Positions 20,027 to 21,124 of a stretch of 34,143 nt of DNA are shown here, in pieces (position 1 is the stretch's first letter; each line of letters opens with the position of its first letter). Source of the stretch: Bacilli bacterium (GTDB taxonomy: Bacteria; Bacillota; Bacilli; Bacillales; Amphibacillaceae); the NCBI GenBank assembly GCA_012838505.1, contig DUPD01000029.1, forward strand, positions 1 to 34,143, written 5' to 3'. The translations under genes and the position numbers were made by a program. Under the pieces are notes generated by a model that was given only the letters and a program-made list of their open reading frames with translations, did no database searches and was not told the DNA's origin.

Positions 20027-20506
20027 ATGACAAACAAATCGAATGACAATATTAATGCAAAAGATTTCTTAATCGGATCATTAGTCGGTACACTAGTAGG
20101 TGCTTCATTAGCACTTTTATTTGCCCCTAAATCAGGGAAAGAATTACGAGGTGACATTAATAAAGGTGCACATGAATTGAAAGATAAAGCTGTTGAGTTA
20201 AAAGATGTCGCTTATGAGAAGACCGATGAATTTAAAAAATATGCTAAAGAACAATCAGCACACATACAAGATATCGTTACTGAGAAAAAACAAGAATTTG
20301 AAGAAAAGTATCAAGAGACAAAAAATATGATTAAAAATAAAGCAGAAGAAGCGAAAAAGAAAGCTAAAGATAATGTCGCTGAAGTTACAGATAAAGCTGA
20401 GGATGTTAAAGATCAAGCAACAAAAAAAGCTGAAGCAGCCGTAGAAGCTTCAGAGAAAGTAAAAGACGCGATCGAAGAAGCAGCAGAAGACATAAAAGAA
20501 AAGTAA
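20027..20506 (+). CDS. ytxH: YtxH-domain protein with LEA-like helical tail
   Basis: A 159-residue protein. Residues 11-40 form the YtxH domain, a glycine-rich hydrophobic segment FLIGSLVGTLVGASLALLFA followed by PKSGKELR. The remaining ~115 residues are almost entirely Lys, Glu, Ala and Asp with short repeats such as AEEAKKKAKDN and KAEDVKDQATKKAEA. They are predicted to be one long amphipathic helix like LEA-type desiccation proteins. In B. subtilis YtxH is a general-stress protein; a protective role against osmotic or drying stress is inference. The AGGAGG site is ideal. A very strong terminator follows. Confidence 0.83.
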   Translation: MTNKSNDNINAKDFLIGSLVGTLVGASLALLFAPKSGKELRGDINKGAHELKDKAVELKDVAYEKTDEFKKYAKEQSAHIQDIVTEKKQEFEEKYQETKNMIKNKAEEAKKKAKDNVAEVTDKAEDVKDQATKKAEAAVEASEKVKDAIEEAAEDIKEK

Positions 20507-20551
20507 TCAACAAAAAACGAATCTCAAAATGGGATTCGTTTTTTGTTGATT
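20505..20551 (+). terminator. Strong terminator after ytxH
   Basis: A perfect 19-bp stem pairs 20505-20523 with 20533-20551 around a 9-nt loop. A run of six T residues lies within the second arm. It begins inside the stop codon. Confidence 0.92.
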
Positions 20552-20651
20552 ATAAAATCTGTTAATTGTGGATGAACTTCGTGCTTGTCACATAGCTAAG
20601 GATCGCTTTATGAGCAATGTCTAACAGTTTATCGTATTAAAGCAATTATAA

Positions 20652-20932
20652 GTCAGATCCCCGACGAATAGCTCATAATCGTTAGAGATCGTCCTGATTC
20701 AGAGTGTGATCTCTGATGAATAGCTCATAATCGTTAGAGATCGTCCTGATTCAGAGTGTGATCTCTGACGAATAGCTCATAATCGTTAGAAATCGTCCTG
20801 ATTCAGAGTGTGATCTCTGACGAATAGCCCATAATCGTTAGAGATCGTCCTGATTTAGAGTGTGATCTCCGACGAATAGCTGATAATCGTTAGAGATCGT
20901 CCTGATTCAGAGTGTGATCTCTGATGAATAGC
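20652..20932. repeat. Tandem array of five 52-bp palindromic units
   Basis: Five complete units start at 20663, 20715, 20767, 20819 and 20871, exactly 52 bp apart, with partial copies at both ends (about 20652-20662 and 20923-20932). The copies differ at only a few positions (unit positions 3, 11, 12, 25, 38 and 52). Each junction carries a hairpin: GATCTCT pairs with AGAGATC, then G-T and ACGA/TCGT continue the stem, closing on a loop around GCTCA. A 17-bp linker with the small palindrome CTGATTCAG separates hairpins. As 52 is not a multiple of 3 the array does not encode a repeated peptide. It lies between the ends of convergent genes. Function unknown. Confidence 0.93.
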
Positions 20933-21124
20933 ACCTATTCGTTCCCCCTATAATGATTTTCCAACGAGACAGGGCATGATTAGCTCATATCACGATTTTT
21001 GTATCCTTTTCATAGGATTTATAGATATGAAAGAATTCCTCTTTATATTGAGATACTTTAATTAGGCTTAGATGTCTCAACATAGTGCGAAGACCTACCT
21101 TGTGATATGAAGTCATATTATTTG
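20933..21124. other. Gene-free stretch between the array and the FtsA-like gene
   Basis: I see no gene here. It opens with GAATAGCACCTATTC (20926-20940), a 6-bp hairpin that closes the array, and contains CATATCAC near 20983 and its complement GTGATATG near 21100, too far apart to pair convincingly. No terminator for the minus-strand FtsA-like gene is evident. Confidence 0.5.

What the first reader, a model, noticed from the sequence alone, without database searches (positions are those of the whole stretch)
20652..20932. Exact 52-bp tandem array of palindromes between convergent genes
Five complete copies start at 20663, 20715, 20767, 20819 and 20871, always 52 bp apart, with partial copies at each end. 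Every junction makes a hairpin (GATCTCT with AGAGATC, continued by ACGA with TCGT). A linker of constant length and sequence separates hairpins, so this is not a CRISPR array with variable spacers. 52 bp is close to five turns of DNA, putting every palindrome on the same face. The unit is not a multiple of 3, which excludes a repeated peptide. Near identity suggests recent expansion or maintenance by selection or recombination. Possible roles are a binding array for a DNA-organising protein, a boundary between convergent transcripts, or a structured RNA made by read-through. All roles are inference.
Basis: partly seen in the sequence, partly recalled or inferred. Interest (0 to 1): 0.75.

Follow-up and report, generated by a model that had tools for sequence, protein, structure and literature searches.

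The report
Five-turn palindrome arrays across Bacillales
One bacterium carries at least thirty gene-free arrays of a 52-letter palindromic DNA unit, and mostly unrelated arrays in its relatives keep almost the same unit length, close to five turns of the helix, so a DNA-binding protein likely sets the spacing.

Summary
The array is real: 5.5 copies of a 52-bp unit at 20656-20943, copies about 92% alike. It is not unique. It is the expandable middle of a modular interspersed element (leader, n x 52 bp, tail) built like pneumococcal BOX. I found 30 arrays and 174 units in the home genome; 138 of 144 spacings are 52 bp. All 12 elements with an intact left end start just after a terminator-like hairpin. 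Palindrome arms are shared between arrays; linkers differ in sequence but hardly in length. No REP-type (Y1) transposase or reverse transcriptase was found. Beyond the genome, the period is conserved where the sequence mostly is not: in 2.83 Mb from 180 stretches of relatives, 15 of 18 non-coding tandem arrays have period 50-53 or 104 bp (13 of 15 without stretches chosen with knowledge), and 6 of 105 unit pairs look related. Best reading: a BOX-like repeat whose unit is likely held at five helical turns by a DNA-level constraint, probably a protein bound on one face. The protein is unknown. Shared descent without function is a close rival.

The parts
20027..20506 (+). ytxH-like gene, upstream neighbour
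   Evidence: Pfam YtxH 1.6e-24
20516..20544 (+). rho-independent terminator-like site behind ytxH: hairpin AACGAATCTC-AAAAT-GGGATTCGTT, then T-run; the element begins right after it
   Evidence: sequence; -11.9 kcal/mol hairpin + T-run
20545..20655 (+). leader (5' module) of the element
   Evidence: window 20561-20689 matches the leader query from C103 at 72%; alignment A1
20656..20950 (+). tandem array: 35-bp palindrome units at 20656, 20708, 20760, 20812, 20864, 20916, with 17-bp linkers between them
   Evidence: TRF; PWM scan
20916..20950 (+). 3'-terminal hybrid unit: type-1 left arm, different (type-2) right arm TTCCCCCTA
   Evidence: same kind of switch in other arrays
20951..20995 (+). 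tail (3' module), a degenerate type-2 unit
   Evidence: 20934-20986 matches the tail of the C88 element at 81%
21007..21124 (+). right-hand module shared with the element at C99
   Evidence: window 21007-21129 matches C99:23458-23581 at 84%; its first part also stands next to the arrays in L113, L117, L119
21125..23260 (-). FtsA/PilM-like gene, convergent neighbour
   Evidence: NCBIfam and Pfam FtsA, PilM, MreB matches

Best explanation
The array is the expandable middle of a BOX-like modular interspersed repeat, and its palindromes sit exactly 52 bp apart, which likely lines them up on one face of the DNA for a still unknown DNA-binding protein. Shown by the sequence: leader + n x 52-bp unit + tail, n from none to about ten in this assembly, at 30 array loci; intact left ends just after a terminator-like hairpin; palindrome arms shared between arrays, linkers homogenised within each array and different between arrays, unit length almost unchanged; period 50-53 or 104 bp in 15 of 18 non-coding arrays sampled in the order although most unit sequences look unrelated. 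Inferred: copies spread by an unidentified machinery acting in trans; arrays grow and shrink by unequal recombination or slippage; units keep about five helical turns (5 x 10.4 bp) because a protein that bridges, wraps or relaxes DNA binds successive palindromes from the same side, much as tandem BIME-2 arrays are reported to bind gyrase.
For: Dispersed family: 58 matches of the array in the own genome, 30 arrays and 174 units, one orientation per array, 18 tail matches, two minimal elements with no internal repeat (L144, L147). Left end: 12 of 12 intact leaders follow a hairpin + T-run of -10 kcal/mol or better, against 19 of 300 random intergenic positions. Length held: spacings 52 in 138, 51 in 5, 104 in 1 of 144; linker identity 0.86 within and 0.48 between arrays, arms 0.85-0.86 between; on minimum spanning trees of the 52-bp units 218 substitutions and no length change against 194 substitutions and 12 indels in leaders (p = 1.5e-4; 0.0012 if the 51-bp end steps count as one event). 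Wider class: 9 of 397 genomes match the G210 array, 8 of the 9 with TRF periods 52, 53 or 104; TRF survey without a sequence query 15 of 18 non-coding arrays at 50-53 or 104 bp against 1 of 22 coding arrays, p = 2.9e-7. DNA rather than RNA: no covariation in the stem (1 pair changed on both sides, shuffles 3.8), and outside positions 8, 13 and 16 A.C mismatches (106 cells) are as common as G.U (95).
Against: No protein is identified, and there are no binding, strain or expression data. The length test is fragile: units were kept only if the next one lay exactly 52 bp on, five arrays end in a 51-bp step, and on linkers alone p is 0.010, 0.068 or 0.80 with none, one or five such events counted (whole unit with five: 0.08). 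Position 8 is G.U in 141 of 174 units and never A.C, which fits a single-stranded (+) form, though it may be one inherited state. In all 13 listed leader-bearing arrays the first unit's right arm fits the next unit's left arm better than its own; elsewhere own 17, next 14, tie 13. The (+) strand folds better than the (-). Palindromes are not universal in the wider class: 8 of 15 surveyed arrays and 4 of 10 units found by homology pass p < 0.05. Periods 50, 51 and 53 also occur. Conserved length could be descent plus homogenisation.
Confidence: 0.42

Rival explanations
1. A selfish or neutral BOX-like repeat with no host function. All such arrays descend from old 52-bp arrays; sequence drifts while homogenisation purges units of odd length, so the period is a relic.
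For: BOX repeats are judged parasitic in PMC3049150 (abstract; sections 5-7 and passages read); post-terminator and convergent places tolerate insertions; the family was not detected in the other 60 relatives by DNA or the other 149 by model (the model search scored few candidates per genome); related units exist in 9 other genomes; 51-bp end steps show that length can change.
Against: Leaders of the same elements carry 12 indel events where the whole unit has none or one; only 6 of 105 pairs of surveyed units look related although the period is the same.
Confidence: 0.35
2. RNA-level element: the transcribed (+) strand forms serial hairpins that slow, stabilise or attenuate transcripts read through the terminator.
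For: Strong (+) fold, z -5.9; G.U at position 8 on the (+) strand; element between a T-box and the ileS start, where it would be co-transcribed (L125); upstream gene points into the array in 18 of 24 cases; first-unit pairing.
Against: No covariation; A.C as frequent as G.U elsewhere; the leader proper has no consensus fold, the only 5 pairs lie in the first unit; an RNA would not obviously need a near-constant linker length; no Rfam family over the element.
Confidence: 0.15
3. Transcription boundary between convergent genes (bidirectional roadblock).
For: Convergent places enriched: 7 of 18 against 265 of 1,718 gene pairs of relatives, p = 0.014 (ORF thresholds differ between the two counts).
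Against: 10 of 18 lie between co-directional genes and one precedes ileS; a terminator-like site is already there in all 12 cases tested.
Confidence: 0.05

Closest known systems
BOX elements of Streptococcus pneumoniae and S. suis (boxA/boxB(n)/boxC; boxE/boxB/boxF)
   Same: Conserved 5' and 3' modules around a variable number of tandem middle modules, intergenic, dispersed, enriched between convergent genes, hairpin-rich, one copy beside T-boxes (PMC3049150: abstract, sections 5-7, passages).
   Different: Found here in Bacillales; no TIR or TSD shown; intact left ends tied to terminators; near-strict 52-bp unit. Sequences were not compared with BOX.
REP/BIME-2 arrays of enterobacteria
   Same: Palindromes in alternating orientation, in tandem; BIME-2 reported to bind DNA gyrase strongly (PMC2817692, passages).
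   Different: No Y1 (RAYT-type) transposase found in the assembly; linker homogenised per locus.
bcr repeats of the Bacillus cereus group; Bhal and Bant families
   Same: Bacillales intergenic stem-loop families (PMC2267715, passages: Bcr1, Bant-1, Bhal-1).
   Different: The passages give sizes of 72-167 bp and the word tandem does not occur in the text; sequences not compared.
Group IIC introns
   Same: Insertion just after terminators (recalled).
   Different: No reverse transcriptase match in the assembly, no Rfam intron match.

Membership tests
BOX element | 5' module, 0-n tandem middle modules, 3' module | tested here: met
   Leader, units, tail; minimal copies L144 and L147. Only 10 of 30 arrays show an intact leader start
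BOX element | Multicopy, dispersed, intergenic | tested here: met
   30 arrays, no ORF of 70 aa or more kept over them
BOX element | Terminal inverted repeats and target-site duplication | tested here: inconclusive
   Left end follows a T-run, right end often a T-run; no same-genus empty site (ytxH not found within 1.5 kb of the gene in G001, G002)
BOX element | Sequence homology to boxA/B/C | not tested
   No streptococcal copy was compared
REP/BIME | Alternating palindromes in tandem | tested here: met
   Arms alternate; two dyads per unit, 26 bp apart, read from the unit
REP/BIME | Cognate Y1 tyrosine transposase (RAYT) | tested here: not met
   PF01797: none in G000, which is 86% complete
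REP/BIME | Binding of gyrase or IHF | not testable with these tools
   needs binding assays
CRISPR array | Unique spacers between repeats | tested here: not met
   Linkers repeat within arrays, identity 0.86
Group IIC intron or retron relic | Reverse transcriptase in the genome | tested here: not met
   PF00078: none in G000, 86% complete
Known Rfam RNA | Match at the gathering score | tested here: not met
   None over the element in the window or in 12 fetched loci; only T-box and tRNA nearby

The most novel reading that the evidence does not exclude
Bacillales chromosomes carry a general class of bacterial satellite DNA whose unit length, five helical turns, is conserved while its sequence is replaced: a chromosomal protein acts as a ruler that selects 52-bp periodicity, the bacterial counterpart of nucleosome-length satellites in eukaryotes.
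Probability: 0.33. Interest if true: 0.88.

Novelty: new variant of a known kind. Interest (0 to 1): 0.7.

Why it matters
Bacterial tandem repeats are usually treated as sequence families. A class that keeps its period but not its sequence points to a physical ruler on the chromosome and gives a direct assay for it: arrays in and out of helical phase. If the ruler is gyrase, an HU-like or a bridging protein, the arrays would mark where Gram-positive chromosomes handle supercoiling behind transcription units. If it is only descent, it is still a BOX-like repeat with a strong tie to terminators, outside streptococci.

Tried and rejected
CRISPR array: rejected, linkers repeat. Coding repeat: rejected for the home family, no ORF of 70 aa or more kept over any array. 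REP/RAYT and retroelement mobility: no PF01797 and no PF00078 match in an assembly that is 86% complete, so a missing gene is possible. Plasmid or phage origin: no match in the plasmid or phage collections for the window array or the G210 array; one exact pattern each for type 1 and type 2 gave none in viral contigs. Covariation of the stem: rejected. Cross-linker pairing: 13 of 13 leader-bearing first units, but next 14, own 17, tie 13 elsewhere. Leader shared across genera: an 11-mer recurs in L064, but an HMM of the leader finds nothing significant in 56 array flanks. DnaA-box-like TGTGGATAA in the leader consensus: intact in 1 of 13 aligned copies, not followed. Promoter in the element: one weak site, fewer than in shuffles. 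Target-site duplication: not settled. E. coli control: one 50-kb stretch had no non-coding array at all, too little to say whether the period is special to Bacillales. Literature: ten searches listed no paper on a 52-bp tandem class in Bacillales; only open-licence PMC text is searched, so this is weak. Seen: PMC3049150 abstract, sections 5-7 and passages; PMC4666352, PMC2267715, PMC1590033, PMC12306157 and PMC2817692 in passages only; PMC3733652 and PMC8122249 (nucleosome-length satellites) only in search listings.

Full report
Observation. TRF reports 20656-20943, period 52, 5.5 copies, 92% matches, no indels; six palindrome units start at 20656 and every 52 bp after. It lies between ytxH (+) and an FtsA/PilM-like gene (-). 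Both strands of the element fold better than shuffles, the (+) strand more so.

Family in the genome. The window is contig C9 of a 2.33-Mb, 111-contig assembly, 86% complete. The array sequence has 58 matches there. I fetched stretches around the places hit and scanned these and the window, not the whole genome, with a weight matrix: 30 arrays, 174 units, one orientation per array, 2 to 10 units each. Twelve of the 30 lie within about 400 bp of a contig end (contig coordinates), so array lengths and counts are lower bounds.

Modular element. Flanks are conserved too. A leader of 95-124 bp precedes the first unit (10 arrays measured) and a tail of about 75 bp follows the last. Of the 30 arrays, 10 have an intact leader start, 2 (C88, C89) have a leader cut by the contig end, and the two arrays on L120 have only its 3' part; the other 16 have another or truncated left flank. 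Two further loci carry leader and tail with no internal repeat (L144 at C69, L147 at C103). The window element runs from the T-run of the ytxH terminator to the stop codon of the convergent gene and includes a further right module shared with C99. In relatives with the same convergent pair the gap can be short: 86 bp in G009 and 96 and 123 bp in two Halolactibacillus genomes, measured between tblastn match ends; but the 36 of 80 named loci where both genes were found range from 96 to 1,944 bp, so a long gap alone proves nothing. In the two same-genus genomes ytxH was not found within 1.5 kb of this gene, so there is no clean empty site.

Place. All 12 intact leaders (10 arrays and the 2 minimal elements) start 2-24 bp after the beginning of a T-run that follows a hairpin of -11.9 to -22.6 kcal/mol; 19 of 300 random intergenic positions pass -10 (25 pass -8, 47 pass -6). 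The start of the window leader was set by alignment and lies inside the T-run. The hairpins differ from locus to locus, so they most likely belong to the host genes. One element sits between a T-box (149.5 bits) and the ileS start. By a simple ORF caller, of 24 arrays with the upstream neighbour in view the gene points into the array in 18; of 18 with both neighbours 7 are convergent, 10 co-directional, 1 divergent.

Anatomy of the unit. Consensus: GATCTCTGACGATTAG CTC CTATTCGTTAGAGATC plus a 17-bp linker. Arms X and X' alternate, so each unit has two dyads, at positions 18 and 44, 26 bp apart. Arms are 0.85-0.86 identical between arrays and linkers 0.48, yet linkers within an array are 0.86 identical: each array is homogenised by itself. 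Length hardly drifts: 138 of 144 spacings are 52, one is 104 (a skipped unit), and five are 51, each of these the last step before the terminal unit of an array. On minimum spanning trees of the 30 array consensuses, built from the 138 steps of exactly 52 bp, there are 218 substitutions (104 in linkers) and no length change; leaders show 194 substitutions and 12 indels (p = 1.5e-4 for the unit, 0.010 for linkers). Counting the 51-bp end steps as one inherited event gives 0.0012 and 0.068, as five events 0.08 and 0.80. The test is therefore suggestive, not decisive.

RNA or DNA. The stem shows fewer compensatory pairs than shuffles. Outside positions 8, 13 and 16, A.C mismatches (106 cells) match G.U (95), so (+)-strand pairing is not protected in general; position 8 is the exception (G.U in 141 of 174, A.C in none). 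In 13 of 13 listed leader-bearing arrays the right arm of the first unit fits the next unit's left arm better than its own; elsewhere there is no preference. Terminal units switch to another right arm. The evidence leans to DNA but does not close the RNA door.

Relatives. By DNA the array is found in 1 of 61 and by covariance model in 1 of 150 genomes, the own one each time (the model search scored 39 of about a thousand candidates per genome and listed 59 units even at home); none of 80 named murC loci match the model. A full element, however, hits 2 of 397 genomes of the order, the own one and G210, which has an array of 54.6 copies of a 52-bp unit with the same core ACGATTAG...CTATTCGTTA. 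With that array as query 9 of 397 genomes match, G210 included; TRF gives 52 or 104 in seven of the nine, 53 in G467 and in a second array of G372, and only a 47-bp pair in G149.

Period survey. To avoid searching by sequence I ran TRF on 80 named loci of 7.6-13.4 kb fetched for murC, 60 unnamed stretches, 20 interior stretches, and 10 each from G046 and G006: 180 stretches, 2.83 Mb. Non-coding arrays with period 30 or more and at least 2.8 copies: 18, with periods 52 (10), 53 (2), 51, 50, 104, 41, 63 and 66. Coding arrays: 22, of which 19 are multiples of 3, one is 53. Some stretches were chosen with knowledge: the G046 and G006 series and first stretches of genomes that had matched G210. Leaving out the three arrays found there (41, 52 and 53 bp), 13 of 15 remain in the class. 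Three of the 15 arrays in the class lie right behind murC, the gene used to fetch the loci, and two overlap short ORFs (L267:1-226, L274). Named hosts are Alkalibacillus aidingensis (two arrays), Bacillus sp. DNRA2, Metabacillus idriensis, B. marasmi (50) and a Bacillales MAG (104). Of 105 unit pairs 6 reach the 99% level of shuffles, where about 1 is expected; the three strongest are two same-genome pairs and DNRA2/marasmi. Inverted repeats are significant in 8 of the 15, in 0 of the 3 arrays of other period, and in 4 of 10 units found by homology, besides the window's own. Of 12 surveyed arrays with both neighbours 7 are between co-directional, 4 between convergent and 1 between divergent genes. 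The leader of the home family is not found beside these arrays.

Interpretation. Architecture, dispersal and place are those of a BOX-like element (PMC3049150, sections 5-7). The new part is the period. Either all arrays descend from one 52-bp ancestor and homogenisation purges length variants, or length is selected. I lean to selection by helical phase (52 / 5 = 10.4 bp per turn) because length is kept where sequence is free, both among arrays of one genome and across genera. The closest functional parallel is BIME-2, reported to bind gyrase (PMC2817692, passage). No protein has been identified. Outside this order only one 50-kb E. coli stretch was looked at, with no non-coding array in it.

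Noticed in passing
L125:145-535 (C80): An element lies between a T-box leader and the ileS start, so it would be part of the ileS mRNA; a BOX element between T-boxes is reported in S. pneumoniae (PMC3049150).
   Followed up: partly
L118 end (C109), L125 start (C80), L128 end (C97): Three elements are followed by an ileS-like 5' end (named from the reading frame by eye); in L128 the fragment is cut short and followed by a polA-like start. This suggests recombination between elements or an assembly branch.
   Followed up: no
L132:3250-3480 (C8:20949-21179): A second array type next to a type-1 array: arms AGGGTACGATTAG / TAATCGTTCCCT, like the units of G210 and G282.
   Followed up: partly
L064:7481-7816, L073:4488-4865, L082:7459-7630: In three named genomes an array of about 52 bp sits right behind murC, between murC and a convergent M29 peptidase gene, with an apparently unrelated unit in Alkalibacillus; 26 of 80 loci share the gene pair, with gaps from 45 to 2,117 bp.
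   Followed up: partly
L263:4825-7660 (G210:C3): A 2.8-kb array of 54.6 copies of a 52-bp unit, the largest seen; a second array of about 22 copies is at G210:C1, around 936135-937282.
   Followed up: partly
G002:C1 (2,569,486 bp): The length of this same-genus genome fits, from memory, Amphibacillus xylanus; the window's genus may be Amphibacillus. Not tested.
   Followed up: no
alignment A1, leader: The leader consensus contains TGTGGATAA, a DnaA-box-like 9-mer (label recalled), intact in 1 of 13 aligned copies.
   Followed up: partly
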